From Thelephora terrestris (taxonomy: Eukaryota; Basidiomycota; Agaricomycetes; Thelephorales; Thelephoraceae), in the NCBI GenBank assembly GCA_015956445.1, contig WIUZ02000016.1, forward strand, positions 1 through 64,000: 64,000 nucleotides of DNA, written 5' to 3'. The notes under the pieces were generated by a model. That model saw nothing but the letters and a program-made list of their open reading frames with translations. It had not been told where the DNA came from and did not search any database. Positions within the stretch are counted from its first letter, which is position 1. Every line of letters begins with the position of its first letter. The position numbers were made by a program, and so were the translations under genes. Below, one piece after another: positions 20,928-61,190 of this stretch.

Positions 20928-22316
20928 CTAGAAGCACCCAGCAGATGCAGCTGCCAGGCTTTTCAGCTCTTCTGTGATTGTTACACTTCCTCTGTTGATA
21001 CTGATGGTACCAATGAAGATATTGAAACAAAGCACAACGAGGGTGGGGTCAAATTCGGCAACTTCCAGCACCGACAGGAGGTAGAACATGGCCGATGTGT
21101 GGATGGCCTTATCGAGGGATGTCTGGAGTGTCCATGAGATGCAACGCAGGTCGAGCGTGGCAACCTTCCGGGTTAATTGCTGTTCTGGAGTGGAGGGCTC
21201 AACTTGTGGCCGGTTACGTGCCCTGCGAAGAAGGTGGTAGACTTTAATGGGAACGACCAACGCCCGGATGAAAGCTCGCCAGAGACGACGGGCGTCAGTA
21301 GCAAGGGCAGGAGGTATTTCGGACAACAGGTCCCGCAAAAAAGGTTTGGTTTTGCCCCTAGACCACCAGGGGTGATGACATTCTGTGTTGAGCCAGATGG
21401 TGTCAATTGTCTCCTTGAGGGTTTTTCTGAGAGCCAAGGCAATGCCTGAACGAATGGTCTTCCCCAGATAGCGAAGGAATTGTGATCCAGGTGTTTGATA
21501 TGGACAGCTCTCGGTAGCCATCCCGGCAATGATGATGAAAAGGTAAAAGATGACGCCAATCAAGGTGATGCCAAGGACAACCAACGCGATCATGATATCG
21601 ATGTCCCAGAGGTACCGCGAAAGCGCACACCCTAGAAGCAACAAGGCGGCCTGCAGCATCAACCGCAACGACTCCATCACAGATTTTAAGTACCACGCGT
21701 CGACACCGTCCAGTTTCCTCTGCCGATTTTGGCTGCGCTCGATGGCCGACCCTCGCATATCGGTCGATTCGTAGCGGTTCAGCCACTGCTTGCCAAGCAT
21801 CGCAAGGAATCCGGAGAAGAGGGAGGCGGCAAGACTTGCGAAGAGGATGGCCTGGACATGGACCATCGTGCGCGGAGGGCCAGTCCATTCTGGGAGGGTG
21901 GGGACATTGTTTCCGAACGTGGTGTTATCCATCTTGTAGATGATGATGCGGAGCAGCGCAACGGTCTCGTCACCCGGGTCTGGCTGCAGTTGGGAGGCGA
22001 CTTGGATGATAAACGCGGACGTAACGGCGGAAAACAGACCAGCCTGTCCTTCTGATGAACACATTTTCATGACGGTTTCATTTGGAAAACTGCTCACGAA
22101 GATCAAGGACGTATTCAAGTCCTCATCGTATTTCTTGAGGAATTCCTTGTCGAACTCCTCAGCAACTTTGCTATAGTGCTCGTAGAATTTGGTCTGATGT
22201 TCTTGATCAAGGGACGACATTCCTTGTTTCTGGCTGTAAGGCGATCTTAGTGACGCTCTGGTCAGGCGCGAAAAAAGCTCACTCATCGGCCTGGGGTCGG
22301 ACACTTCCTCCGCCAC
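20928..22316 (-). CDS. DUF6535 membrane protein, C-terminally shortened
   Basis: A fungal DUF6535-type protein of unknown role. Residues from the KYDEDLNTSLIF motif lead into AGLFSAVTSAFIIQV, MLGKQWLNRYESTDMRG, LMLQAALLLLGCALSRYLW and a strongly hydrophobic stretch (VVLGITLIGVIFYLFIIIAG) before CPYQTPGSQFLRYL. These suggest about four membrane segments, then a cytosolic tail. An intron at 22044-22097 (54 nt, GTGAGC to GGACAG) falls exactly between LIF and AGLF. It has a length divisible by three and no stop, so retention would leave the frame open. The start at 22316 is the first ATG in frame. The reading ends at GCF, where the paralogue at 28173-31015 continues for hundreds of residues, so this copy has lost its C-terminal half. 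Confidence 0.75.
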   Translation of the reverse strand: MAEEVSDPRPMSELFSRLTRASLRSPYSQKQGMSSLDQEHQTKFYEHYSKVAEEFDKEFLKKYDEDLNTSLIFVSSFPNETVMKMCSSEGQAGLFSAVTSAFIIQVASQLQPDPGDETVALLRIIIYKMDNTTFGNNVPTLPEWTGPPRTMVHVQAILFASLAASLFSGFLAMLGKQWLNRYESTDMRGSAIERSQNRQRKLDGVDAWYLKSVMESLRLMLQAALLLLGCALSRYLWDIDIMIALVVLGITLIGVIFYLFIIIAGMATESCPYQTPGSQFLRYLGKTIRSGIALALRKTLKETIDTIWLNTECHHPWWSRGKTKPFLRDLLSEIPPALATDARRLWRAFIRALVVPIKVYHLLRRARNRPQVEPSTPEQQLTRKVATLDLRCISWTLQTSLDKAIHTSAMFYLLSVLEVAEFDPTLVVLCFNIFIGTISINRGSVTITEELKSLAAASAGCF

Positions 22317-28172: not shown

Positions 28173-31015
28173 CTAGGAAGACGTACGAGTCAAAGGTTCC
28201 ATCGCCTTCCTGTCCACCTCCAGCAGCGTACCCCTCAACTTTTCGTATTGTTCCTTCCTCTGCTGGACGTCATCTTCCTCAATCTGCGGCTTATGTTGTC
28301 TGAAGTATGCCAACCCCCGGTCCAACTCCCCAAGTACGTGATCCAACCGTTCGATCAGGTCGTCCCGGTGGTAATACATCGTGATCCCACCAAAGTCACC
28401 CCTGATCGCGTCCTGCATCTCCTCGAGGCCATAGGGATTCAGGTGATCCCACTCAGACCAAATTAGGAGGAGGTAAGACTTGACGGTTTCGATATCCCCG
28501 AGTCCTCGGATGTAGAGGACAGTGGATGGACAAGATCCGTTCGATCGTCCCCGGCACGCAGGCGGGAGAGCAGGCCGCTTCTTCAACCAAGCCCAAATTC
28601 CGATGGGAATGTACGAATGTAGGGTGCTGAAGTCTGAAATTCGCAACAGGGTGTTGACCACGTTCTGGACTACCTCCTCTGAATATGGGACAGCTAATGC
28701 TGCCGCCGCCCACCTGGCGACCGCGTGCTGAGAGTTTGGCCCGTCGTACCAAGGAACGTACGGCGACGCGCACGTAATCGCTCGGTTCAAAGAAGGTGGA
28801 CTCGATTCGCCAAACACTGCGGTGATGTATTTTCCAATGTGACGCCACCTGAATCCCTCGGAAACCGACTCCGAGACCTGGGCAGCGCGTAATATTGCAT
28901 CGACCATCTGTTGTTGCCCGCCTTTCTCCAGACGGATCGCATAGGGGAATAGTGTACTGATGGCCTTGCGCTTGGACCGAAGGACCGTATCCACATCAGG
29001 GTCCTCGACCATGATTTTGAGCTTCTGAGTGACGAGGCTTGAGACCGTCTCCACCCGCGTACTGATCCTCGGTCAGAAATGTAGATATCCACCAGATTTG
29101 AACACACCTCTCATCTAAAGTCGTGATGTTTGAAACGTCACAGTCCAGTTCTATTGCGACAATTGTCAGGGAGTCGGCAACAACCGACGCCGTGGATGGG
29201 GGGTCCAAAGATAGGGAGTGGAGTGCAAAGCGGAGAATCCAGCGGGGTACCCTCCTCCGTTGCGTCTGCTGATATTCCACGTGGGCAGCTTCTAACATAC
29301 TCCGTGCGAATGGAATATATTCCTCGTTGGGTGGCCTGTAGTCGTCCCACTGGGAGTTGCGGGGGTTCCATTGTTTTTCGGCCAACGCATGGATCTTCTT
29401 CATTGTGTGATAGAACGGAAGGCCCCTGAAGTCTGTATCAAAGGGAAAGAACCTGTCATATCGCCGGCGGAGGTCTGTCAAGGTACCCGAATTCGGATCC
29501 GTGTCTGCGAGATGATGAAGGGTCCGGAAAAAGCATTCGACGGACACCGTCGCGAGCTGCTCCAGCCCTTGCAAAATCTTCAGCTTGCGATTGCTGAAGC
29601 TGACACAGCCAACAAAGACGTTGAAACAATTTGGGACGAGGATGGGATCAAAGCCCGTGAGGTCCGTCACGGTGCCAAGGTGTTTCAAGGTCGATAAATG
29701 AACAGATTTATCCAAGGATTTCTGGAGCGTCCATGAAATGCATCGCAAGTCCAACGCAGCCGTGTGCTGGCCCAATCTCCGCTTGATGGTGGAATATATG
29801 CTGTAAAACAACCCGCGATCCCCTCTGCGAAGAAGGTTGTAGGTTCCAAGCGGAATAGCAAATAAACCTCGGATTGTGGCTCGCCCGACGCGATAGAAAT
29901 CAACGGCGAGTCCAAGGGGGACTTTGAGGACTGTGTCCCTCAAGAAGGGAACGATCTCGTTCCTGGACCACCAGCGCTTATACACCTCGGCGTTCTGCGT
30001 AACGGTTTCAACGACTCTGGACTGCCTGAAGCTACTTTGAATGAGTGAGGATATTGCTGACGGAACTGAAATGATGAACGAGGCAGTTGCCGAACGGGCT
30101 GAAATGATAAATGAGGGAGTCGAACTAATTTTGCTCCAAAACTTCGGCGCCAGGTAGCGAAGGACCTGTGACCCGGGTGTTTGATACGGACAGCTCTCGG
30201 AAATAGCCCCAGCGACGACGATGAAAAGGAAGAAAAAGACGCCGAACGAGGTGATGCCAATGATAACCGATGCAACAGTGACGTCGATATCCCAAAGGTA
30301 GCGGGAAAGGGCAAAACCGAGCAGCAACAGAGCAGCCTGCATCATCATCGGCAACGACTCCATCACATGGTTAAAGTACCACGCGACAATGCCGTCTAGC
30401 TTTCGCTGTCGGCTCTGGCTACGGTCAATGGGTGACCCCCGCATGTTGGTCGATACATAACGGTTCAACCATTGCTTTCCGAGCATCGCTAGGAAGGCGG
30501 CGAGCAAGGAAATAGCGAGACTGGTGAACAGTATGGCTTGTACGTGGACTATCGTAGGGGGAGGTCCAGTCCATTGTGGGAGGGAGGGGACGTCGTTTCC
30601 GAAGGTAGTGTTGTCGATCTTGTAAATTAGAACGCGCAGGAGGGCCGCGGTTTCATCGCCCGAGTCAGGCTGCAGATGAGAGTCGACTTCAATTATGAAA
30701 GCGGAGGCGACAGCTGAAAATAGACCAGCCTAGTTCCCCAATTAGCATGCATTAACCAAACCTAGACATGGAGCTCACGAAGATCAGGGTAGTGTTCAAA
30801 TCTTCATCATATTTATCCATGAACTCCTTATCATACTCTTCAGAAACTTTGCGGTAGTCTGCATAGAATCGAGCCTGATGATCTTCTTGAACTGGTAATA
30901 CATCCTCTTCCCCGCTGTGGTACAGTCTTAGTGGCAACATGCTCGGGCAGCGAAGAAAACCTACCCTTTTGCCTGCTGCTGAATATTCTGGCCGCCATTG
31001 AAAGGCTCCACCCAA
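28173..31015 (-). CDS. DUF6535 membrane protein, long form
   Basis: The second DUF6535-type gene. Exon 1 ends FMDKYDEDLNTTLIF at 30779. A 49-nt intron (30730-30778, GTGAGC to GAACTAG) is followed by AGLFSAVASAFIIEV, again placing the intron between LIF and AGLF. Then come SLLAAFLAMLGKQWLNRY, MMMQAALLLLGFALSRYLWD, a hydrophobic hairpin (SFGVFFFLFIVVAGAI) and CPYQTPGSQVLRYL. The long C-terminal region is helical and Leu-rich (DLRCISWTLQKSLDKSVHLS, VPRWILRFALHSLSLDPP, YSEEVVQNVVNTLLRISDF, ELDRGLAYFRQHKPQIEEDD). Near 29054-29065 the reading shifts frame after FLTEDQ, which is either a one-base change or an unrecognised short intron. The ATG is uncertain; 31015 is the start of the open frame. Function of the family is unknown. 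Confidence 0.75.
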
Positions 31016-36928: not shown

Positions 36929-39900
36929 ATGGATCCTCATCCGAACAATCCAGGTTCCCCACCCTACACAGAACCCCATGACTGGATCACGGGTTATCTG
37001 ACCGTCCATTCCATGAGCAAACCCAGCTACCGAGTCGCCTTCGCCCTCTGGATCATTATCGCTGCCTTCTTTTTGATCGGCACTGTCGTCCATCTTACGG
37101 GAACAAGCAAGCCGTTCTGGTTTGCTCATTGGTCCAAGTGGGCGTTGCGGAGGAGGACGTGGCGGAAGCATGCAGGAAAGAAAGAGGCTGAGAAGACGGG
37201 AAAACCTCACAGGCAGCCAACTCCATTACCCTCGAATTCCCAACTCCTGTCTCTCGGATTCATCTTTATCCTTTCCATGATCCTCTGCTTCGTCGGTCCT
37301 GATTATATCGCCCCTCGTAGACCAGCAGGCATTCCAGACGGTCCTGCTCCCCCATCGACCCTCCAGAACCGAGAAGTGGACCACAAACAGATCGCGGAAT
37401 ACGTCGCCTATTACACTATCAACAAGTCCTGGTGGACCGTGGCTGGAAGAACGGGAAACATCGCCTTCGCCCTTTTCCCGTTGTGCATCCTCTTCGCGCT
37501 CAAAGCTGCCCCGTTCGCGCTCTTCGCTCTTCCGTACACCACTCAATTCTCTTTCGACAAGCTATCGACCCTTCACCGTTGGGTCGGTCGACTGATCTAT
37601 TTCATCACGTCGATCCACGTTTTGTCTTGGAGCATTCAACTCGCGACCACCAAGAATCCCGTCACTAACAGGACTACCTACATCTATGCGTGGCTTTACC
37701 CGCCATTCGTTTGGGGTTGGGCTGTAAGTTCCACTCTCACCGCCCATGTTTCGAGTCAATACTGATCGTCATTTCCAGGCATTCGTTCCGTTCACGCTCC
37801 TGATCGCCTCCTCTTTCCGTTTCTTCCGCTACAACTTTTACGAAACCTTCTACGCCCTCCACGTCTTCCTCGTCCCTATCACCTTGTTCACCGCTGGAAT
37901 GCATCATCCCTCCGTCGGTTGGTGGTGCTGGAGCGCTCTGATCATCTGGGTCGCAGAAAGGGCTTGGCGCGGTACCTGGTGGTTCTGGGTTAATGGAATC
38001 TTCAAACGGCAAATCCCGAACGCCCCCCCACGGGAGAAGTCCTTGAGTCACATGTCTAGGAAGTCTTCGATCTCCAGCCTCGGTCTCAAAGGCACTGCCA
38101 ACTTGGACACCATCTCCGAATACACCGATTATGAAGCCCCGTTGCTACGGAAGCATTCTCGGGTGCCCACGAGGGTCGAAAGCTTGATGTCCCCACCTTC
38201 GACTTACGTCCCTCCTCCCGGTTACGCTCTCGCGGAGCTGATGCCCGGAAAGACGATCCGCCTCACCGTTCTCACTCCAGCATGTCGACCATGGGCCCCC
38301 GGACAGCATTTCCTCCTCTCTATTCCGTCCATCAACAAGTACACCTCCCATCCGTTTACCGTCGGTTCGATCTGCGATCAGGAGTCTTCGAACCCCGCCG
38401 GCCGAGTGCTGATCTTCTTCATCCGCGCAAAAGCCGGATGGACAAAAACTCTTTGGGATACCACCGTCGCACTTGGCGCCAGGGACAAATTCCACTGCGA
38501 CGGTGAAGAGCCTCCACAGGGAACGTACCCCCCAGAGCGCGGTGTTCTGCTCCGCACGTTCGTGGAAGGACCGTTCGGCTCGGTGGCGAGGACTGATTGG
38601 ATCGAGTATTCGAGCGTGTTGTTGGTCGCTGGTGGCTCTGGTGTAAGCTTCGCGTTGTCTGTGCTCGTGTATCTGTGCTTGTGTTTGAGCGGACGGGCCT
38701 CGAAATACCTCGGAGGGCAGGCAAAACCGTTCTCTAGAGTGTCTAGGGTACGCTTCGTTTGGCTGGCTCGAGAATTCTGTAAGCAAACCGCTTGTCTTCG
38801 TTCGTGCCTACGTTCTGACTATCTCTCTTTTCTAGCTCATATCTCATGGTGCGCGTCGATCGTGAGGAGATGTATGGCCCTCGTGCCCGGTTCAGCCCTC
38901 CAAGTCGACATCTTCGTCACCAACGTCCCCAAGGACAAAAAACCCACGACCCCCGCCGCCCCAGGAACCGAAGGCACCAAACCGCCACGACTCTCATGGA
39001 CACCTTCAAAAAGCCCTGTATCGCTGAACCCCACCGGAGCCGCCCCGAGTATGGAAGACGTGTCGTTGGAGGCGGGTTCCCGAGGCCCCGGCCATCTCGC
39101 ACCCCCTGAAGAAAGGAGGCCCCGGCCCGTGTCTATTTCGTCTTTCAGCGACGACCACAACTCGTTGCTGATGCCTAACCCACACGAGGGCGGTCCCGGA
39201 CGATACGGCGACGGAGGGTTGAAAGGAAAGGATTACGATTACGAGATGGGCATGGACGGCCAAAACGGGCAGTTCCAGGAAGACAGCACGTACGACGTTC
39301 TCGATTACACGCATTTCAACGGAGATTTGGACGCGGAGGTCGTCCCTGCCGAAGAGTCGTTTAGTAGGAGGCTGAGGCAGGAGGGTGCGTTGAGGAGGAA
39401 ATTGACGAGGAAGATGACGATGGGGATGGGGATGGGGATGGAGGCGGGTGGACATCAGGATCAGGAGAGCTTGTGGGCGGATTTGGGGCAGCAGGTCGCG
39501 TCTCCGACGTTGATTGCTACCCCTGGCCCTGGAGAGTATTTCACGCCTCCGAATTCTTCACATGGTCACAAGGGAGAACACGCGCAAACCATGCATGAGG
39601 GCGCTGACGAAGACACTATGGGCAGGGATGCCCGACGGTCGTCCATCCCACCGTACCTCCAGAAGTACGCCGAGCTCGGAAAACGGGACGCGACCAAGTC
39701 GTCGAGGGCCCAGAGGCTGGAACGTACTTCGATGAGCTCGATCCGGGATAACATCATGGACGTTTCGGCCGTTCAAGCGATGCTCCCCAAGACTGGGAAG
39801 GGTGCTCGAGGCGAGGAGGTCGCCCTTCAGTTTAACGATGAGGAGGTGGAGGATATGTTGGCGATGACTGAGTATGCTTGGCCTGGACGTCCGATGTTGG

Positions 39901-40155
39901 ATAAGCTCCTGAGGGAGGAGGTGAAGTTGGCGAAGGGTCCTCTCGTCGTTGCTTGTGCGTTCTCTCTCTCTCTCACTGTTCTTGATTATTGGTGATTCTG
40001 ATTCGGGCTTTGCTTGCTTTTTCACAGGTTGCGGTCCTACCCAATTGAGCGCGTCGATTAGGAAGATCGTCGCGGCCCAGATCGACCCTGTGAAGATCAA
40101 GGCCGGAGACCAGACCGGGTACATCTCGTGCGTGACCGAGGAGTTCGAGTACTGA
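36929..40155 (+). CDS. Ferric-reductase-like flavocytochrome (FRE/NOX family)
   Basis: A plasma-membrane metalloreductase-type enzyme moving electrons from NADPH through FAD and two haems. Exons 36929-37723, 37779-38778, 38836-39954 and 40028-40155 give 1013 residues with matching phases. About six membrane segments lie in residues 30-370. Haem-ligand histidines are likely those in KLSTLHRWVGRLIYF and ITSIHVLSW, and in FYALHVFLVP and TAGMHHPSV. The FAD site shows HPFTVGSICDQ, and the nucleotide site shows LLVAGGSGVSF and a terminal VACCGPTQLS (CGP motif). Between the last two lies an acidic, low-complexity insert of about 300 residues, unusually long, including repeats of MGMGMGM. The 57-nt intron at 38779-38835 keeps the frame if retained. 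Iron, copper or other substrate cannot be told from sequence. The nearby ATX1 gene makes a copper/iron uptake role plausible. Confidence 0.85.
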
Positions 40156-46018: not shown

Positions 46019-49000
46019 ATGGGTGACTCTATCAAGGGTAATACGAACGAGCAGGAGTCAGCGCCGTTGCGGATTGACCAAAAATGGTACTTTCAGCACA
46101 CCATGTCGCTCGTACCGCTTACCCCCGAGAAAACATAGTCTCCAAGATGCTCTCAGAGGGTTTTTCCAACCCATCAAGAACGAAGATCCTCGACTCGACT
46201 TCTACACAATGTACAAGAGGGAGGCGACCGAGTACGATATCGACCACGTCAAGAAGTACGACGAGGACCTCAATACCACATTGATATTTGTGCGTCGCCC
46301 ACTTACTCGTGATCACTAGCCATCTCACCCGGTCTTGCACATCAGCAAACCCGTCCGCTCTTCAGAGACCTTTGAAGACGCGAAAGTGCCAAAAGTGCCA
46401 AAAGCTTCACGTGTTTTTCAAAGATCATTGAAGATCGCACGCGGCTTAGAAACACTGTTAAAGTAGCTACGGTACTTTAAAGTAGTTAAAAGACAACGGA
46501 AAGATGCCAAAAAGTGAACAAAAAGATGTCAAAAAAGCGAACCAAAAGATGTCAAAAAGTGGACAAAAGACCCGGGTTAGTGCCGGTCGCTTTACTCGTT
46601 TTCGGCGCACTCAGGTATTTCGGATCAGGGGGAAGATTGTATTGCTCAGTTGACTACCTACAGCTAACTACGAGGCGCACTTGAACGGGAAAGGAGGGAG
46701 CAGGGTTGGTAGTTAATTAAAGGAGTGTTAAACATTGTATCGAGGATTAGGAAGGGGAGAGGCGAAGACCTATTTGGAGCTCAACTTGAGGGAGATGGTT
46801 GTCAGAATCCTGGACGCCGTGTTGGTTTGAGAGTTCATGGACCTGGCAAGACAGGTGAGCCACGGAAATAGAGAAGGGACTAATACTCACATTCCAAACC
46901 CAGCCCACGCAGCGAGGCGTTCCTGGAAGCAAGGTCCGTCGATTGGATCATCTTCAACAGAGGCCATTGCGTGCAAGATTTCATCATACACTTCCTTGTA
47001 TGGTTTCCGTTCCAGTTTGACGGTCCGGGGGTAGCCGTTGGACCATTCATCAATCGCATTCCTATACTGAGGATATTGTGAGCGAGGTCAGGGGCCTGTT
47101 GGTCTTCAATGGAACTTACGATGGCACCGATCAACGCGACGAGTGGTTTCGGGACCGCCCCTTTGAACGTGTCTGGGTCGTGGGTAGATATCTCGTGCCA
47201 TTTGTCGAAATAGAACAGCTTGGTAGTGGAGGCGATGATTGGATGGGCAAAATGGATTTGATCGTCCTGGAAAAAAAATGAGCAGGGGCTTGAGTGGGTT
47301 CGAGTGTTACGAACCGAACCGGGAGTGACGTCGTGGAGATAAGAACCATCTCTGACCCATGTATCTATGGTAGCTTTCACCTTTGACTGAAGCTCTTGTG
47401 CAGTGCCAGTGAATCGGTCTGGAAAAAGCGACTTGAGGTTGCGTACTTGGGTTCGGAGGTCAGTCTTGAGTTGGGAACGAAGCAACCAAGATTCAGCATA
47501 GACCTGGTATTCAAGGTTGTTAGCGTCGGGTGGCACAGAGACAAAGAGACTTACGAGCATGATCATATCTCTGTCAATCGTCTGACCTGGTTCAACCACG
47601 CCTCCATCGTCCAGATGAACAGCCAAAGCGTCGTCGAGGCATTCTCGGGCCTCTTGAACACCGGTGAGCGCATCAGGAAAACCATTCTTCCCAGCAACGT
47701 ACGCCCTGAATGACTGTTTTGCATAGCAGATGACCTCCTGCCATTGCGGCGGATATGTGCTGAGAGTACGAGAAGTGTTGGTGTTTTCTTGTTGCGGTGG
47801 TGGCGGCAGGGGATTGACAGATGGTGAACGTTGAATGCGAGACGGGTTCGGAGCTTTCGGCGTACAGTTCCGGGCATAGTGAGCCTGAAGCACAGACGTA
47901 TCGTTACCAAGCTCCTGTTTTGCATGGAGGGGTGTGTGTCAGTAGCGTTCACTCGTGTAGTGGCTCTACTTACCGAAAAACCCTGGTGACTGTATGGGAG
48001 AACCATGGGAGAACCATTGGCGAACGGATTGGTCGCTGTCGGCTCGGAACGTAGGAACTCGTGGGCTGCACGATCATCCTCGTCATCCGATCGTTCGTCG
48101 ATTTCAATGTCGTCATCCTGGGCAATATCAGCATCCCCTCCATCCGATTCAGGATCGCTCAGGTGGTGGTCCGAGTTATCGAACGAGGGGGTGGGAGCGC
48201 GTGACGGACGAGCGGGTGATGCAGTCACGGATGGTGGAGACAAGCTATTGAACGAGGGGGTGGGAGCATGTGACAGAAAAGCAGGCGACACGGCCACGGG
48301 TGGTGAAGACAATGGCTGCGCGGGGTATGGCGACAACCTGGAGGTTGGCTGAGCTAGGGCCTGCGGGGGAGAAATGGGAGATGAAGGAGTGGACGGTGGT
48401 TGGGAGAATCCAAGACGGGGATCAATGTTGGAGAACAATTGCTCGCATGGCTGGGACGCCGTTGGTGGTGGCAAAGTTGCCTATTTGTCGTTGAGCGGTC
48501 ATTAACATAGAAGAAGAAATCATAATATACATACCTTCTTGCTCCGACGCTTTTTTGGAACAGGGGCGAGGAGATTGTTGGGAAGAGACAACCCGTCACT
48601 GGGAGCGAAGCGTTTCTTCGTCTGGCGAGCGGGCGCAGCAAGAAGGTCACCGAGCTTGTCAAGTTGGACATCTCGGCCGTTCGAGCCACGACCACGGCGA
48701 GAAGAGCGACGTGCTTGGGTTGGCGGCTGAGCCATGGACCCAGGTTCTATAGTCAGAGGGGTACGAGGACTAGAGACGAGGATGGGGGTTGTGTCTCGTT
48801 CGAGGCGGGCTTTTAATCCCCAGAGGAAGCGGGCCTCGTGCACAGGCCCAAGATGTTGGACCAAGGGCATAAGGCGAGTGGAAAAAAAGAGAGAAATTTC
48901 ATTGATTGGAGGGGCAGGACTGAGATCGCGGTCGTCGACGAGAAAGACGCAGTTTCGAGTCGGAGCGCCATCCACGGCCGCCGTTTTCGCCTCATGGATG

Positions 49001-52000
49001 GGCCCGAAGTAGTCTAGTAGCTGAGGGGTTGAAATATTGGAAATCGGGTCAGGCGATGGACGGATTCGTGGTTGGGTGTTGCAGCAAAGGAAGAGAGAGA
49101 GAGGATGAGTCGTGGGAGGTTCGCGGCCGTTTTCTGCCTCGAGCCCGGAAGCGCTCAAGCCGCGTGCTGGACCCGCGTGCTGGCTCGTTCGATTTTCAAA
49201 GATCGAAGGCCCAAGGGTTGACGTGGCCTCTCTCACCCGCTCTCCCAACAGTGCGTCGGCTTCCCCACCTTTTATATTTTATTTCCGCTAATTGTTTGCG
49301 AATTTTAGGGGTCTAGATAGGTACGGGGAACAAATATCAACATTTTGCCCTTCCCCACCCCCTCGCAATGAGAGGAAGAAGGCTTCGCAGCCAACAATAC
49401 ACCCGCCGGTTCGCCTGCCCATACTGCGGGAAAAGATTTGCCGACGTCCTTCGCCATCTAAACCACCGCGAGTCCAAGTGCTCTGGTTGGTTTATGGACC
49501 GACCATCCCCTTCGCGCTCGGTATCGCCTCTCCCACCCGATCCCTTTGACGACCTCGAACCCATCATCAGCATGGACGATGCACCCCTGTCTCCCCCCTT
49601 AGTCAGTTCTCAGCTAGACCCCCAACAACGTCATATGGACTTCCCTGGTGCCAGCAACACCTATGGCCGTGGGAAGACGTTCGTCGACCGCTTCAACAAC
49701 GACAAGTTTGCGCCATACAGAGTCCAGAACCCTTACTACCCATTCGCCGATCAGGAGGAGTGGGAACTTGGATCGTTCCTCCTTCGTTCAGGCATGTCAA
49801 TGCAGAAAGTGGACGAGTTTTTGAGACTCAAGCTGGTATAGTGAATTTTCGCTTTATTGTTACATCGTTAATTAACTTCTACCTAGATCAAGGGTGCCGG
49901 GGTTACATTCCATACTGCGAAGGACCTACGAACTCGTATCGAGCTCTTGCCGAGTGTCCCCGAGTGGAAGTTCAAGAAAGTTGCACTTACTGGATACGCC
50001 ACAAAGGAGCCAATGCTCCTATTCTATCGCGATGCCCTCGATTGTGTCGAGTACTTGTTTGGGAACCCCCTTTTCGCCAACCGAATGGACTTCAGCCCTG
50101 TCCGGCGCTATCGCGATCTTGAACGGACGATCCGTGTTTACACCGAGTGGATGACTGGGGACGCCGCTTGGGAAATGCAGGTTAGTTTTTAATTTTACCT
50201 CTCAAATCCATGCACGGTCTCACCTTGGGTTAGGAAATGCTCCCGGATGGTGCAACGCTCCTCGGTGTTATTCTCTCCTCGGACAAGACAAACATATCAG
50301 TTATGACTGGCGATCGTACAGCCCATCCGGTACTTTTAAGCCTGGCAAACATTCACGCAGACGTTCGCATGAAGTCTTCGAATCGTGCCTTCCTCCTCGT
50401 TGCCCTCCTTCCTTGTCCAAAGTTCGTCGTGAAGGACAGGGGAGTCCGTGGTGTCCTCGAAAACCGCGTCATCCATCTCTGCCTCGATATCATCACCCAC
50501 CCCCTGAAGCTTGCCGCTCGCATCGGACGAATGATGTCAGACCCTCGTGGCTACAGTCACTTCTGTTTCACATTCCTCGCATCATACATGGTGGACACTC
50601 CTGAGGCTGGCATGCTGGCTTGCGTTGCTGGGAAGACCTCACATCTCACCATGGCCGACTACCGCAAGTTTGGTGACCCCACTCGACAGGAACCGCGCAC
50701 AGCATCAACAACCCTCGCACAACTCGCCGCAATTGCAACGTCATTTCATCCCTTGGATCTCCCAGCCTACATTCCTGCTGCGAAGGCCATCCGGCTCAAC
50801 GGCGTCCATCTCCCTTTCTGGCGCGACTGGTTCCTTCAATCGCCACCCGGGGTCCCACCACGAATGCTTATCGCAGATCCCTCTCAATTCCTCACCCCCG
50901 AGCCTCTCCACCATTGGCATAAGCAGTTCTGGGACCACGATATGAAGTGGTGCATCCGCGTTGTTGGCGCAGACGAGCTCGACTTCCGTTTCTCTACTTT
51001 GCAGCCAATCGTCGGGTTCAAGCACTTTAAGGATGGGGTGTCTAATCTCAAGCAGGTCACTGGTCGCACTCATCGAGACCTTGAACGCTACATTGTCGGC
51101 ATTATCGCCGGGAAGGCACCACCCTTATTCGTGATTGCAATTCGTGCCCTGATGGATTTCCGTTACCTGGCGCAATCCCGACTGCTTGATGATAGCTCCC
51201 TCTCCCGGCTCTCCGCATCACTCAAACTCTTCCACGAACATAAACAGACGATCCTCGATATCGGCGCCCGTGTTGGCAAAGGCAACAAACGACTCGATCA
51301 TTTTCAAATCCCAAAACTCGAGCTGATGCACGGGGTTGTCCCTAGCGTTATCAAGTCAGGATCCGTCATTCAGTGGTCAGCAGATAGGACCGAGCACGCC
51401 CATATTACCGAGATCAAAGTCCCTGGCCGTTCCGGAAACAATCAAGATCACAACCCCCAGATTTGCAGGTGGCTTGACAGGTCTGAGAAACACCAAAATT
51501 TCTCCCTCGCCCTCCAGCTCCACACGCCCGACACGGACCTCGCGGTCACGCTTGATGACGAAGACGCTCTTGAAGATGCGGATGATATCAATCAACGTAA
51601 CGACCTAATGCCACCCCCGGATTTCTTTTTGCAAGCAGCCCAGCTTGCTGCACGTCTTTCGCCTACCACCCCACTCCCTCTTCGAACGTTCTCCACAGAC
51701 AGCACTGCGTTCCACCTTAACCGGCGCCCAGACCTTGGGCCGTTGACTGTTGACGAAGTCGCTCTCAAGTTCAACATCCCACATCTTCGCCCAGCGCTTG
51801 CAGACTACATTCGACGTGCACGAGACCTTCAATCCTCCATGTTTAAGGTTGGCCAACGTCAGCTGTCCCACGCCAATGCCACATTGCCCTTCACCCACCT
51901 CCGAATCTGGTATTCGGCCCGTGTTCAGGCGCGGTCGATTGACGCCACAGACACAAATGTTCCCATCAAGGTCTGCGCAGAACCACCTTCGCCTCAGTGG

Positions 52001-55000
52001 CCATTTGGCCGTTATGATACCGTCCTGGTTTCCGACGGATCCCCACCGGGGCGGGGCCTATCTGGTATGTATTTGATGTTGATTGTAGTACCCTCAATCT
52101 CTGACCTCTTCCTAAGGCTTTGACCTCGTTCAAATCCGTTTGATATTCCACCCCATCTGGCCGCTCAACACGTTCCTCACCTATGCCGAGCGGTTCGACT
52201 TGATTCCCCAGCCCACCCACTTTGGCAGCACGACACGTGCATGTTGCCCTGATCCTGTGACAGGGATGTACGTTATGAAACGTGCTTCCCGTTCCAACGG
52301 CACTCGCATGGGGGGTGTGATTCCCCTTTCGCAAACACAGACCGCTGCCCCACTGATCCCAAAGTATGGCCCTAAGGCTGATCCAAAACTGACCTCTCGT
52401 AATAGTCTGGAGTTTAGCACAGAATTTTTCTTGAACCACTTTTTTGAGAAGGATCTTTATTACTTCTTGAATGATTTGTAGTAACCTAGTTGCCTCGTGA
52501 AATCCAATGCTTGTGTTTCGTCTGAAATGAAATTTGACCAACGGGTTCAGCAACCCATCTCATACTTTTCAGACTTGAAACATGAGCCTCGCCCACTCTG
52601 CGAGAACTGGCCAGTGGGACCAGCAGCCCATCCCATACTTTTCAGATTCAATATCACTCTAGTAATAAAATTCGTGGCCCTCAGAGAGTCAAAGCCAGCA
52701 ATCCATGCTTTGCCGATGAGCGCTCGGATCCGTCTTTGGATCACTTTGGTTCTTTTGTCCCTTTAGCGCCCTAACCGGCATATTCGATAATAAGCGCCCT
52801 TTAGGCGCCCTTAAGCGCCCTTTTGCTTGCTTTTTGGATCTTTTGGGGCACTTTTCGTGACTTTTCCAGCTTTTCCACTTTACAAAAAATACTGTTTTGC
52901 TGATGCAGGCAGGGCTTTTCTCTGCCGTTAGCTCGGCTTTCGTCATCAACATTCATTCGAAGCTCCAACCAGATCCCAGCAATCAAGCAGTGGCTCTTCT
53001 CCTCGCCACCCTCCTCGCCCTAAACCATTCAGCGACTCTTAACGAGGCAGTCACCGTTCCAATCGTCCGAGAGAACCCTCCCGGGGAGATCGTCACCGTC
53101 ACTTGTTTTTTGTACGCGAGCCTTCTGATCTCTCTTTTGGCCGCGTTCACTGCAATGCTGGGGAAGCAGTGGCTAAACCGATACTTGAGGCACGTCGGAG
53201 GGTCGATGGTCGACCGCTGCGGGGACCGCCAAATCAAATGCGACGGGCTCCGGAAATGGCCGTTCCACCTCTTCATCGAGAGCCTTCCGGTGATGCTCCA
53301 GGCCGCTCTCCTTCTCCTTGCCTGTGGTCTTTGCCGGTATATGGCTTCTATCAACACCTCCGTAGCCGCTGTCCTCATTGGCCTCACTCTGCTCGGAGTT
53401 CTGTTTTACACTTGGATTGTCTTCGCCGGCGCATACTCGTACGCTTGTCCATTTCAAACACCAGCGTCAGTCCCGCTGCGTAGTTTGTGGACGAAAGTTG
53501 GCCCCCGCTTAATCCCCGTTGTCATCCCCATCGCACAAACCCTGCATAATCTAGAAGCAATCACTCGCAGGTGCATCCTCGCAAGCCATTTGCAACTCAC
53601 CGACTTTCACCATCACATTTGCAGCTTGTGGGAGAAGATTCGACCTGGAATCATCAATGTAGGGCGTCGTATCTTATGGCCAAGATTGAATAGTTCCAAT
53701 CATCCATCACTACCGTCGGTTAATGTGGTGTCACATCCGCCTCCTGTTCCCCGAGAAGTTACCCACTGGTTATCGCCGAAGGAGTTGGTCACCATCCAGA
53801 TGACAAACCTGAACGACGCCCGCTGTGTCTCATGGATCCTCAGGTACATCACTGACCCGGAAGCCCTTGATACCGCTCTCCCCCTTGCTGGAACAATTCG
53901 GTGGTTCGAGGATGGGGCTGACACTGCCCCCCCGTACGACATAATCACCTCCACATTCCACGCATGTTTTGATTCAAACGGGGAGGTCTATCCGGGGTCA
54001 AGAGACAGAGCCTACTACTCTGGTCGGGCAATTCTATGGATTCACACTCTTGCAATGTGCAAATCTGAGGTGGTCGCTCGCACGTTCCCTCTTCCAGACA
54101 CGCAATACAAAGCCCTCACTTCTGACAGTGACCTTACACATCTTCTCAACGCCAATGTGGCAATGCCTGTCGAGGAATGCATTGCTCTTCTGCTTCAAGC
54201 TGGCAGAGGAAACACCCCCTCGCACTTACAATGGATTTCAAATGTGTTGCTGCACCAATCTTGGGCCAACCAAGCCACTCTAGATGCGGAAGTATTTGTG
54301 CGCCCACCTACCTTCCCTGTGGATGTCAACCCTCCCCTTGATGCGGTGCTTAACTGCCTCTTGATGTATTGTAATTTCCTTGGCTTTTCCGTTGAGGAAG
54401 AGGCATTGAAAGTCCAAGATAAATTGTGCAGCGTCTCATGTACTTGACCTTCAACTTGCTCATACCCTCATTCACTAGTGATCGATTGCAACTGGTCCTA
54501 AATCAAGTGGACAAAGCAGTTGTTTTAACCTTGATCACCACCCCCTCCCTCAATGAACTCGTAACATTTAGTGTGTTATCAAATTTGAAGAAGTTGGAAA
54601 ACCACCCCTGGTGCTTGACAGAAATGGCATATGGGTGGTGTGATGTGATCTGGGAGAGTCGCCATGCCGGTTGGAATTGGGGGATCTTTCTTCTTCTTTC
54701 TTTGGAAGTTGGTTTTCGTCACCTTACCCCAGCTCCACAGAAATTACGAATGGGCACTCTCACCCACACAGAACACCACCGAGAATTGGTCGAAATGGTC
54801 TTCAAGAGCAATGATAGCGAAGCAATTGCAGACCTCCTTTGTGCTTTTACGATGACTGATGAATTCTGTCCACTGCCATACAAAGTGCTCGATGTCTGCA
54901 CTCGGTACATTGCCGATCTTCCTTATAGGCCCCCGGTCCATTTTTCCCCAAGACTGCGGGAATATGTTATACACTACATTGGGCTCATGGGTTGCAGGAT

Positions 55001-56331: not shown

Positions 56332-56489
56332 TTCAGCTATCTTTTCTCCATGGGTCATGGACCATACATCGTGACAATTCTCCATGGGTCATGGGCCATG
56401 CAACGTTGTACAACGCGTTGTACAACCCATCACCCATGGAGAAAAGATACCATTGTACAACCCATGACCCATGGGTAATGGAATAGTAT

Positions 56490-57890
56490 CCGTTGCCCAT
56501 GTCCCATGGGTTGTACAATGGTATCTGTTGCCCATGCCCCATGGGTTGTACAACACTATCCCTTCCCCATGCCTCATGGGTTGTACAATGCTATCCTTTC
56601 CCCATGGGGCATGGGTTGTACAACGCTATCCAATTCCCATGCCCCATGGGTTGTACAACACTATCCATTTCCCATGGGTCATGGGTTGTACAACACTATC
56701 CAATTCCCATGCCCCATGGGTTGTACAACGCTATCCGTTCCCCATGGGTCATGGGTTGTACAACACTATCCTTTCTCCATGGGGCATGGGTTGTACAACA
56801 CTATCCATTTCCCATGGGGCATGGGTTGTACAACGCTATCCAACTCCCATGCCCCATGGGTTGTACAACACTATCTGTTCCCCATGGGTCATGGGTTGTA
56901 CAACGCTATCCAATTCCCATGCCCCATGGGTTGTACAACGCTATCTGTTCCCCATGGGTCATGGGTTGTACAACACTATCCGTTCCCCATGGGTCATGGG
57001 TTGTACAACGCTATCCATTCTCCATGGGGCATGGGTTGTACAACACTATCCATTCCCCATGGGGCATGGGTTGTACAACACTATCCATTTCCCATGGGTC
57101 ATGGGTTGTACAACACTATCCATTTCCCATGGGTCATGGGTTGTACAACACTATCCATTTCCCATGCCCCATGAGTTGTACAACGCTATCCTTTCTCCAT
57201 GGGGCATGGGTTGTACAACCCTATCCATTTCCCATGCCCCATGGGTTGTACAACACTATCCATTTCCCATGGGGCATGGGTTGTACAACCCTATCCAATT
57301 CCCATGCCCCATGGGTTGTACAACGCTATCTGTTCCCCATGGGGCATGGATTGTACAACGCTATCCGTTCCCCATGCCCCATGGGTTGTACAACGCTATC
57401 CTTTCTCCATGGGGCATGGGTTGTACAACGCTATCCATTTTCCATGCCCCATGGGTTGTACAACACTATCCATTTCCCATGGGGCATGGGTTGTACAACA
57501 CTATCTGTTCCCTATGGGTCATGGGTTGTACAACGCTATCCATTCTCCATGGGGCATGGATTGTACAACGCTATCCGTTCCCCATGGGTCATGGGTTGTA
57601 CAACGCTATCCGTTCCCCATGGGTCATGGGTTGTACAACGCTATCCATTCTCCATGGGGCATGGGTTGTACAACGCTATCCAATTCCCATGCCCCATGGG
57701 TTGTACAACACTATCCATTTCCCATGGGGCATGGGTTGTACAACGCTATCCAATTTCCATGCCCCATGGGTTGTACAACGCTATCTGTTCCCCATGGGTC
57801 ATGGGTTGTACAACACTATCCATTCTCCATGGGTCATGGGTTGTACAACGCTATCCATTTCCCATGCCCCATGGGTTGTACAACAGCATC
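56490..57890 (+). repeat. Left 35-bp minisatellite array, about 40 units
   Basis: The period is 35 bp. Each unit carries the 10-bp palindrome GTTGTACAAC, then an ACGCTATCC-type spacer, then a CCCATGGGGCATGG-type block rich in CCATGG palindromes. Variants fall into a few classes (GGGTCATG, GGGGCATG, GCCCCATG) in irregular order. Because 35 is not a multiple of three and units lack stops, all three frames of this strand stay open for over 1 kb. Those frames are repeat artefacts, not proteins. Confidence 0.9.
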
Positions 57891-58064
57891 TTGTGCCCAT
57901 GGGGCATCAGTTGCAGAATGGTGTCCTTTCTCCATGTCCCATGGATTATATCACTATTCCAGGAAAGGAGATACTTTATAAATCAACCATTAGCTGTGTG
58001 AATTTGAAAAAATTAGACTCTGTTTGTATGCATGATAGACCATATATCAGTTTGTGGCTCTAAC

Positions 58065-58310
58065 CTAATGGAAACTAAACTTAACCTGATAATAGCCACA
58101 ACCTAATCCTCAATCTAACCTGAGCCAATGTAAACTTGACCCATGAACCTAAGCCTAACCTAATCCTAAACCTGGTCTAATCCCAAATCTAACCCTAACC
58201 TGACCTGACCTAACCTAACCTAGCCTAACCTATACCTAAACCAACCTATACCTATACTAACCTATACCTAACCTAACCTGGTATGGGCAAACCTAACCTA
58301 CCTATCATGA
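58065..58310 (+). repeat. Telomere-like CCTAA tract, left arm
   Basis: Degenerate CCTAACCTAA, CCTAATCC and CCTATACCTA units. The mirror copy in the right arm lies at about 58905-59150. Confidence 0.75.
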
Positions 58311-58904
58311 CCTGTTTCAGCCTAATGTCATGTATGCCAGCCAAGACTAACTTCACCCAGTTGCAAACATATGACTTGGGTCACAGGACCATAAAGCAAA
58401 CTGCAGCCCCCTCACTCTGTGCCCAACCATCCCATAAGCCCACAGACGCACATATATATCATCAGCAACCCAGCATCATGCTTATCACCCATGTTCAACC
58501 ACAAACCACTCTCACCCTTTGTTCTGTGCTATCTCAAAGCCTAACCATAACTCTAGCTCACCCACCCATATTAATCCTTGTGTGGAATATGTTATAAGTC
58601 TATAAACCATATGTTTGTAGGCCACTTGCTTGTGGGCCCAAGGAGGTGGATGAACTTGAGTTGTGGTTTGTCTGTGAGATAGCACAGAACAAAGGGTGAG
58701 AGTGGTTTGTGGTTGAACATGGGTGATAAGCATGATGCTGGGTTGCTGATGATATATATGTGCGTCTGTGGGCTTATGGGATGGTTGGGCACAGAGTGAG
58801 GGGGCTGCAGTTTGCTTTATGGTCCTGTGACCCAAGTCATATGTTTGCAACTGGGTGAAGTTAGTCTTGGCTGGCATACATGACATTAGGCTGAAACAGG
58901 TCAT

Positions 58905-59150
58905 GATAGGTAGGTTAGGTTTGCCCATACCAGGTTAGGTTAGGTATAGGTTAGTATAGGTATAGGTTGGTTTAGGTATAGGTTAGGCTAGGTTAGGTTA
59001 GGTCAGGTCAGGTTAGGGTTAGATTTGGGATTAGACCAGGTTTAGGATTAGGTTAGGCTTAGGTTCATGGGTCAAGTTTACATTGGCTCAGGTTAGATTG
59101 AGGATTAGGTTGTGGCTATTATCAGGTTAAGTTTAGTTTCCATTAGGTTA
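58905..59150 (-). repeat. Telomere-like tract, right arm
   Basis: The inverted counterpart of the tract at 58065-58310, reading GGTTAGGTTAGG and GGTATAGG on the plus strand. Confidence 0.75.
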
Positions 59151-59324
59151 GAGCCACAAACTGATATATGGTCTATCATGCATACAAACAGAGTCTAATT
59201 TTTTCAAATTCACACAGCTAATGGTTGATTTATAAAGTATCTCCTTTCCTGGAATAGTGATATAATCCATGGGACATGGAGAAAGGACACCATTCTGCAA
59301 CTGATGCCCCATGGGCACAAGATG

Positions 59325-61190
59325 CTGTTGTACAACCCATGGGGCATGGGAAATGGATAGCGTTGTACAACCCATGACCCATGGAGAATGGATAGTGTTG
59401 TACAACCCATGACCCATGGGGAACAGATAGCGTTGTACAACCCATGGGGCATGGAAATTGGATAGCGTTGTACAACCCATGACCCATGGGGAACAGATAG
59501 CGTTGTACAACCCATGGGGCATGGAAATTGGATAGCGTTGTACAACCCATGCCCCATGGGAAATGGATAGTGTTGTACAACCCATGCCCCATGGAGAAAG
59601 GATAGCGTTGTACAACCCATGACCCATGGGGAACGGATAGCGTTGTACAACCCATGGGGCATGGGAACTGGATAGTGTTGTACAACCCATGCCCCATGGA
59701 GAAAGGATAGCGTTGTACAACCCATGACCCATGGGGAACGGATAGCGTTGTACAACCCATGGGGCATGGGAACTGGATAGTGTTGTACAACCCATGCCCC
59801 ATGGAGAATGGATAGTGTTGTACAACCCATGACCCATGGGAAATGGATAGTGTTGTACAACCCATGCCCCATGGAGAAAGGATAGCGTTGTACAACCCAT
59901 GACCCATGGGGAAAGGATAGCGTTGTACAACCCATGGGGCATGGGAATTGGATAGTGTTGTACAACCCATGGGGCATGGGGAACAGATAGCGTTGTACAA
60001 CCCATGGGGCATGGAGAATGGGTAGTGTTGTACAACCCATGCCCCATGGGGAAAGGATAGTGTTGTACAACCCATGCCCCATGGGAAATGGATAGTGTTG
60101 TACAACCCATGGGGCATGGGAAATGGATAGTGTTGTACAACCCATGCCCCATGGAGAAAGGATAGTGTTGTACAACCCATGCCCCATGGGGAACAGATAG
60201 TGTTGTACAACCCATGGGGCATGGGAATTGGATAGGGTTGTACAACCCATGACCCATGGGAACTGGATAGTGTTGTACAACCCATGCCCCATGGAGAAAG
60301 GATAGCGTTGTACAACCCATGACCCATGGGGAACAGATAGCGTTGTACAACCCATGGGGCATGGGGAACGGATAGTGTTGTACAACCCATGGGGCATGGG
60401 GAACGGATAGCGTTGTACAACCCATGGGGCATGGGAACTGGATAGTGTTGTACAACCCATGCCCCATGGAGAATGGATAGTGTTGTACAACCCATGACCC
60501 ATGGGAAATGGATAGTGTTGTACAACCCATGCCCCATGGAGAAAGGATAGCGTTGTACAACCCATGACCCATGGGGAAAGGATAGTGTTGTACAACCCAT
60601 GGGGCATGGGAATTTGATAGTGTTGTACAACCCATGGGGCATGGAGAACGGATAGTGTTGTACAACCCATGGGGCATGGAGAATGGGTAGTGTTGTACAA
60701 TCCATGCCCCATGGGGAACAGATAGCGTTGTACAACCCATGGGGCATGGGAAATGGATAGTGTTGTACAACCCATGACCCATGGGAAATGGATAGCGTTG
60801 TACAACCCATGCCCCATGGAGAAAGGATAGCGTTGTACAACCCATGCCCCATGGAGAATGGATAGCGTTGTACAACCCATGACCCATGGGAAATGGATAG
60901 TGTTGTACAACCCATGCCCCATGGAGAAAGGATAGCATTGTACAACCCATGACCCATGGGGAACAGATAGCGTTGTACAACCCATGACCCATGGGAAATG
61001 GATAGTGTTGTACAACCCATGCCCCATGGGGAATGGATAGTGTTGTACAACCCATGGGGCATGGGAAATGGATAGCATTGTACAACCCATGAGGCATGGG
61101 GAAGGGATAGTGTTGTACAACCCATGGGGCATGGGCAACAGATACCATTGTACAACCCATGGGGCATGGGCAACGGATACTATTCCATTT
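59325..61190 (-). repeat. Right 35-bp minisatellite array, about 53 units
   Basis: The same 35-bp unit as the left array in inverse orientation, with about a dozen more copies and a different order of variants. The arrays have therefore changed in length independently while the inner arm sequence stayed matched. The open minus-strand frames are artefacts as on the left. Confidence 0.9.

What the first reader, a model, noticed from the sequence alone, without database searches (positions are those of the whole stretch)
46290..52908. A Plavaka transposon inserted in a splice acceptor that its own duplication rebuilt
Removing 46340-52905 and one CA leaves a 51-nt intron ending ...GGTCTTGCAG, at the same LIF/AGLF position where the other two DUF6535 genes have introns of 54 and 49 nt. 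With the element present, the right-hand CA plus G again gives ...GATGCAG in front of GCAGGG. The insertion hit the acceptor itself but regenerated a CAG. Both the host exons and the transposase read open.
Basis: partly seen in the sequence, partly recalled or inferred. Interest (0 to 1): 0.85.

Follow-up and report, generated by a model that had tools for sequence, protein, structure and literature searches.

The report
Jumping gene at a splice acceptor
In what looks like a fungal gene, a complete transposon sits right at the end of a short intron and leaves the final CAG next to the following exon, but the sequence suggests that the gene is cut in two rather than neatly spliced across the 6.6-kb insert.

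Summary
Window 46340-52905 is a complete Plavaka element: CATCAGCAAA..TTTGCTGATG ends, CA duplication, open 985-aa transposase, divergent DUF6532 gene. Its ends fit the published PlavakaB rule. Removing it and one CA gives a 51-nt phase-0 intron; the halves abut at DUF6535 profile positions 29|30. Two paralogues have 49- and 54-nt introns there. A CAG does stay before the second exon, as any such duplication would leave it, but the host's branch-point-like CTCAC now lies 6.6 kb upstream. The element's first six bases, CATCAG, put an AG 6 nt past the old acceptor, 18 nt after CTCAC; splicing there ends the protein after nine codons. The element's last three bases are an ATG in frame with the second exon. 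Introns here are 48-59 nt (10 of 10 placed) and the insert carries a sense AATAAA, so a spliced 6.6-kb intron is unlikely, though the right end's pyrimidine content is no worse than local introns. Best reading: an ordinary PlavakaB insertion that splits the gene and traps its splicing at the left end. Only RNA can decide.

The parts
46074..46289 (+). Left host reading frame ending ..KYDEDLNTTLIF; paralogue similarity starts at about its codon 36; start codon not placed
   Evidence: DUF6535 profile 3-29, E 0.034; tblastn to paralogues from residue 36
46290..46339 (+). Host intron remnant: GTGCGT donor, CTCAC branch-point-like motif at 46324-46328, first CA of the duplication at 46338-46339
46340..52905 (+). 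Plavaka (PlavakaB-type) DNA transposon, 6566 bp
   Evidence: termini, transposase Pfam Plavaka 1-325/325 E 2.2e-90, family rule from PMC12730594
46340..46349 (+). Left terminal inverted repeat CATCAGCAAA; its AG at 46344-46345 is a possible premature acceptor 6 nt past the old one
46887..48735 (-). Divergent gene in the element, DUF6532 family, 5 predicted introns, 527-aa model
   Evidence: Pfam DUF6532 E 1.5e-9 on the unspliced frame 46883-47938; spliced model; ATG position; stop codon
49368..52481 (+). Transposase gene, introns 49836-49886, 50181-50233, 52065-52116, 985 aa, same orientation as host gene
   Evidence: stop codon
52664..52669 (+). AATAAA, possible poly(A) signal in the host's sense direction (hexamer match only)
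52861..52908 (+). Frame open into the second exon; contains another in-frame CAG ending at 52869 and an in-frame ATG at 52903-52905 formed by the last three bases of the element
52896..52905 (+). Right terminal inverted repeat TTTGCTGATG
52906..52908 (+). Second CA of the duplication plus host G: the CAG in front of the second exon
52909..54444 (+). Right host exon beginning AGLFSAV, DUF6535, open for 512 codons to the stop at 54445-54447
30730..30778 (-). Paralogue B: 49-nt intron at the same LIF/AGLF site
22044..22097 (-). Paralogue C: 54-nt intron at the same LIF/AGLF site

Best explanation
A PlavakaB-type cut-and-paste element inserted at the last bases of a 51-nt phase-0 intron in a DUF6535 gene and duplicated CA (shown from sequence). 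The host donor and branch-point-like motif stayed on the left of the element, and the CAG plus exon on the right (shown). Most likely (inferred), transcripts from the host promoter splice the donor at 46290 to the AG in the element's left terminus (46344-46345), a 56-nt intron. They would then read LIF-QTRPLFRDL-stop and be cut short or degraded. The right half is thereby uncoupled; if it is translated at all, the simplest start is the ATG that the right terminus places in frame.
For: Termini, duplication and full-length transposase; family rule CATCA..TGATG with 2 or 3 bp duplications. Profile continuity 29|30 and the score gain on joining. Left AG at 46345, 18 nt from the A of CTCAC, against nearest-motif distances of 11-24 nt in 10 of 10 placed introns and 13 nt in the empty site. 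Fusion reading LIFQTRPLFRDL* and in-frame ATG at 52903. Intron sizes in one amylase gene family across basidiomycetes: mean 61.6, median 56, third quartile 62 bp (PMC3584928, passages). In Cryptococcus, introns of 40-60 nt splice best and those over 500 nt are named poorest, with those under 40 nt poor as well (PMC11913375, passages). Among published human variants creating an AG between branch point and acceptor, 258 (74%) made a new acceptor there (PMC10655562, passage).
Against: There is no transcript evidence. The branch point is a motif match only; CTTAC at 46302 is a second candidate, and an AG ending at 46319 lies after it, so another short splice is possible. Acceptor choice is inferred partly from human data. 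Paralogue C's intron has a CATCAG 8 nt before its inferred acceptor that is evidently not the junction, so a CATCAG is not always taken; there its AG ends only 4 nt after the A of TTCAT. Pyrimidine content does not separate the left (0.70) from the right (0.50) acceptor, since local introns span 0.35-0.85. The gene may be silent, in which case no splice fate applies.
Confidence: 0.55

Rival explanations
1. One reading: the whole element is removed as part of a 6.6-kb intron from 46290 to 52908, so the full DUF6535 protein is still made.
For: CAG and phase 0 are kept at the right junction; the domain is complete when joined; a TTTAC lies 26 nt upstream and pyrimidine content is within the local range. 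Elements acting as introns are known in maize (titles seen in a reference list).
Against: The length is over 100 times that of the ten placed introns (48-59 nt). An earlier AG lies next to the host's branch-like motif; the right end's motif lies outside the local 11-24 nt range, and another in-frame CAG ends at 52869. A sense transposase gene and an AATAAA lie inside.
Confidence: 0.07
2. The transcript is not spliced at the left end, or ends in the element: the intron remnant is retained and the protein ends LIFVRRPLTRDH.
For: The retained reading stops inside the remnant; poly(A)-like hexamers ATTAAA at 46716 and AATAAA at 52664, which are short motifs that chance also gives.
Against: A donor, a branch-like motif and a YAG at a usual distance are all present.
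Confidence: 0.15
3. The right half is expressed on its own from a start in the element's right end, using the in-frame ATG at 52903-52905, giving an N-truncated DUF6535 protein.
For: ATG in frame, frame open from 52861; the right exon alone keeps profile positions 30-175.
Against: In frame by chance one time in three; no promoter shown; other ATGs lie upstream in the element's right end (seen, not counted).
Confidence: 0.1
4. The gene was already dispensable or dead, and the insertion is a neutral passenger at a chance position.
For: No in-frame ATG before the conserved block in the open stretch; a frame change at 54423-54444; two other copies of the family in the window, one of which stops at codon 371 of its second exon.
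Against: The frame change can be a 53-nt intron; 512 codons remain open.
Confidence: 0.13

Closest known systems
PlavakaB DNA transposons (PMC12730594, 2025; passages and section 3.2.2 seen)
   Same: CATCA..TGATG ends, 2-bp duplication, Plavaka transposase
   Different: No TET/JBP hit in the element's 8 of 8 ORFs of at least 150 aa, whereas some PlavakaB families carry one; carries a DUF6532 gene. I did not see whether published PlavakaB families carry DUF6532.
Maize Ds1 elements spliced as introns (Dennis 1988, Wessler 1991; only titles seen in a reference list; details recalled)
   Same: DNA transposon removed from, or altering, a host transcript by splicing
   Different: Different superfamily, small elements, RNA evidence (recalled). 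Here 6.6 kb and no RNA evidence.
Introners (PMC9860276, 2022; passages seen)
   Same: Splice sites recruited partly from the target duplication in some families
   Different: Introners are short (family medians 30-654 nt), multicopy and create new introns; this is one large coding element in an intron position shared with paralogues.
Soybean CACTA element Tgmt* in intron 1 of F3'H (PMC2613891; passages seen)
   Same: Large element with a CACTA-class transposase in an intron, 3-bp duplication
   Different: 20.5 kb, plant; tied to a known mutant trichome colour.

Membership tests
Plavaka | Plavaka transposase domain, full length and open | tested here: met
   PF18759 1-325/325, E 2.2e-90, in a 985-aa open model
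PlavakaB | Termini CATCA..TGATG | tested here: met
   CATCAGCAAA at 46340, TTTGCTGATG ending at 52905; rule from PMC12730594
PlavakaB | 2 or 3 bp target duplication | tested here: met
   CA/CA; three-base versions differ (GCA left, CAG right), so 2 bp
PlavakaB | Position in the PlavakaB branch of a transposase tree | not tested
   No reference transposase sequences at hand
TET+ Plavaka | TET/JBP dioxygenase gene inside the element | tested here: not met
   No such family at E 0.1 in 8 of 8 ORFs of at least 150 aa that lie within the element (list; scans); shorter exons were not scanned
DUF6535 gene family (host) | DUF6535 domain above the curated cut-off | tested here: met
   Right exon 120.9 bits, joined 156.8 bits, cut-off 23.9; the left exon alone, 14.4 bits, is below it
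Introner | Short element creating new introns | tested here: not met
   6566 bp, coding, intron position shared by two paralogues
Introner | Many copies in the genome | not testable with these tools
   No other copy in the rest of the window; whole genome not held
Transposon that acts as a spliced intron | RNA joining the two flanking exons | not testable with these tools
   No transcripts available

The most novel reading that the evidence does not exclude
PlavakaB ends work as built-in gene traps: CATCAG supplies a YAG acceptor at its sixth base and TGATG supplies a start codon in its last three bases. An insertion near a 3' splice site would then make a short trapped transcript on the left and a re-started protein on the right. 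A bolder form is that the family prefers acceptor-like CAG targets.
Probability: 0.1. Interest if true: 0.55.

Novelty: new member of a known kind. Interest (0 to 1): 0.3.

Why it matters
It is a clean natural test of which acceptor a short-intron spliceosome picks when a large insert separates the branch point from the old CAG and supplies a new AG nearby. If the 6.6-kb intron were really spliced, it would challenge the view that basidiomycete splicing depends on very short introns. Otherwise it documents how PlavakaB ends split genes.

Tried and rejected
Other copies of the element in the rest of the window: none by blastn at E 0.01, and no transposase relative by tblastn at E 1. Relatives of the main transposase exon in viral and prokaryote contigs: 3 and 11 stretches matched a pattern and none was confirmed by tblastn, as expected for a fungal element. 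The window's own genome is not held, so target-site preference over many copies and an empty allele could not be examined. Rejected: that the CA match alone proves the duplication (1/16 by chance). Rejected: that a CAG at the right junction shows a working acceptor. Rejected on re-check: my own argument that the right acceptor is poor because only 50% of the preceding 20 nt are pyrimidines; ten local introns span 0.35-0.85. Rejected: that the frame change at 54423-54444 proves a pseudogene, since a 53-nt GT-AG intron with CTCAT fits; it is one of seven GT-AG pairs that connect the frames. My first DUF6532 gene model used a wrong donor for its fourth intron and was replaced. As far as the listed titles and abstract openings show, none reports a Plavaka at a splice acceptor, but most subscription papers are not in that library.

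Full report
The window is eukaryotic. All conclusions come from this one 64-kb stretch plus papers.

The element. CATCAGCAAA stands once in the window, at 46340, and its inverted copy TTTGCTGATG once, at 52896-52905. The general repeat search lists the same pair as a 15-nt inverted repeat, 87% complementary, among other pairs of similar length that look like chance, so the repeat by itself would be weak. It becomes strong with the published rule that PlavakaB families end CATCA..TGATG and make 2 or 3 bp duplications (PMC12730594, passages and section 3.2.2). Here CA flanks both ends, and three-base versions differ. The plus-strand gene 49368-52481 reads as 985 codons after removal of introns of 51, 53 and 52 nt and matches the whole Plavaka profile, 1-325 of 325, E 2.2e-90, followed by DUF6830, E 7.8e-39. 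A divergent gene, 46887-48735 on the minus strand, belongs to DUF6532 (E 1.5e-9 on its unspliced frame); its corrected model has 527 aa. No TET/JBP family appears in 8 of 8 ORFs of at least 150 aa within the element. No second copy of the element lies in the rest of the window.

The empty site. Taking out 46340-52905 and one CA joins GTGCGTC.. to ..GGTCTTGCAG, a 51-nt intron. The left exon matches DUF6535 profile positions 3-29 with 14.4 bits, below the curated cut-off, and the right exon 30-175 with 120.9 bits. Joined, they match 3-175 with 156.8 bits, more than the sum and close to the two paralogues at 160.3 and 158.8 bits. The paralogues have introns of 49 and 54 nt at the same place.

What the duplication does. 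A staggered cut at CA leaves one CA on each side. The exon keeps its CA, and with the host G it reads CAG. The same outcome follows from any 2-bp duplication at that place, so it says nothing about use. What changed is the context: the host's branch-like motif is now 6.6 kb away.

Left end. The host remnant keeps the donor, CTCAC at 46324-46328 and CCCGGTCTTGCA. The element then adds CATCAG, so a YAG ends at 46345, 18 nt after the A of CTCAC. In ten introns that I placed in this window (three of the transposase, five of the DUF6532 gene, two of the paralogues), of 48-59 nt, the nearest YTNAY motif lies 11-24 nt before the end, 10 of 10; the empty site has 13. These introns were placed by eye from frame continuity and paralogue comparison, without RNA. 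Use of the left AG would give a 56-nt intron and the ending LIF-QTRPLFRDL-stop. Two cautions: paralogue C carries CATCAG 8 nt before its own inferred acceptor, apparently not used, though that AG ends only 4 nt after the A of its TTCAT; and the remnant has a second candidate pair, CTTAC at 46302 with an AG ending at 46319.

Right end. The last 60 nt up to the CAG hold TTTAC (26 nt) and CTGAT (5 nt) as the only YTNAY motifs, and another CAG, in frame, ends at 52869. Pyrimidines make up 0.50 of the 20 nt before this CAG, 0.70 before the left AG and 0.65 before the CAG of the empty site; ten local introns span 0.35-0.85, so this measure does not tell the two apart. The frame into the second exon is open from 52861, and the final three bases of the element are an ATG in frame, giving MQAGLFSAV. 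This is a one-in-three coincidence but offers a simple way to translate the right half.

Splicing over 6.6 kb. In a study of one amylase gene family across basidiomycetes, mean intron size was 61.6 bp, median 56 and third quartile 62 (PMC3584928, passages). In Cryptococcus neoformans introns of 40-60 nt splice best; those over 500 nt are named the poorest, and introns under 40 nt are also poor (PMC11913375, passages). In humans, of published variants that create an AG between branch point and acceptor, 258 (74%) made a new acceptor there (PMC10655562, passage). The insert also has the transposase in the host's sense direction and AATAAA at 52664, a hexamer that chance can give. I therefore give the 6.6-kb intron about 7%.

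State of the host gene. The right exon is open for 512 codons. The next 360-codon frame joins through a frame change at 54423-54444; seven GT-AG pairs of 41-107 nt would connect the frames, of which 54426-54478, 53 nt with CTCAT 16 nt from its end, looks most intron-like. On the left, similarity to the paralogues begins at codon 36 of the stretch examined, and the only in-frame ATG after the last stop is 46209, inside the conserved block. The true start must lie in another exon or is lost. Whether the gene was intact before the insertion is open.

Verdict. A well-defined member of a known transposon lineage at an unusual spot, with a plausible trap-like effect of its ends. The insertion near an acceptor is one post hoc case, and nothing here shows targeting.

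Noticed in passing
56461-60750: Two arms of about 2.1 kb, 91% complementary, 78 nt apart, containing a 35-nt minisatellite (53 copies listed for the family starting at 59156); five stop-to-stop ORFs of 504-732 aa lie open in several frames there.
   Followed up: no
20931-22106 (-): Paralogue C of the DUF6535 gene stops at codon 371 of its second exon while paralogue B runs to 577 codons before a frame change, so C may be truncated.
   Followed up: partly
54423-54444: Frame change in the host gene that a 53-nt intron (54426-54478) could explain.
   Followed up: partly
36905-39992 (+): Ferric-reductase-like gene over two ORFs: Ferric_reduct in the first, FAD- and NAD-binding domains in the second, all above cut-off.
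   Followed up: no
46488-46568 and 52791-52823: Short repeats near both ends of the element, possibly transposase binding sites as in CACTA elements (the comparison is recalled).
   Followed up: no
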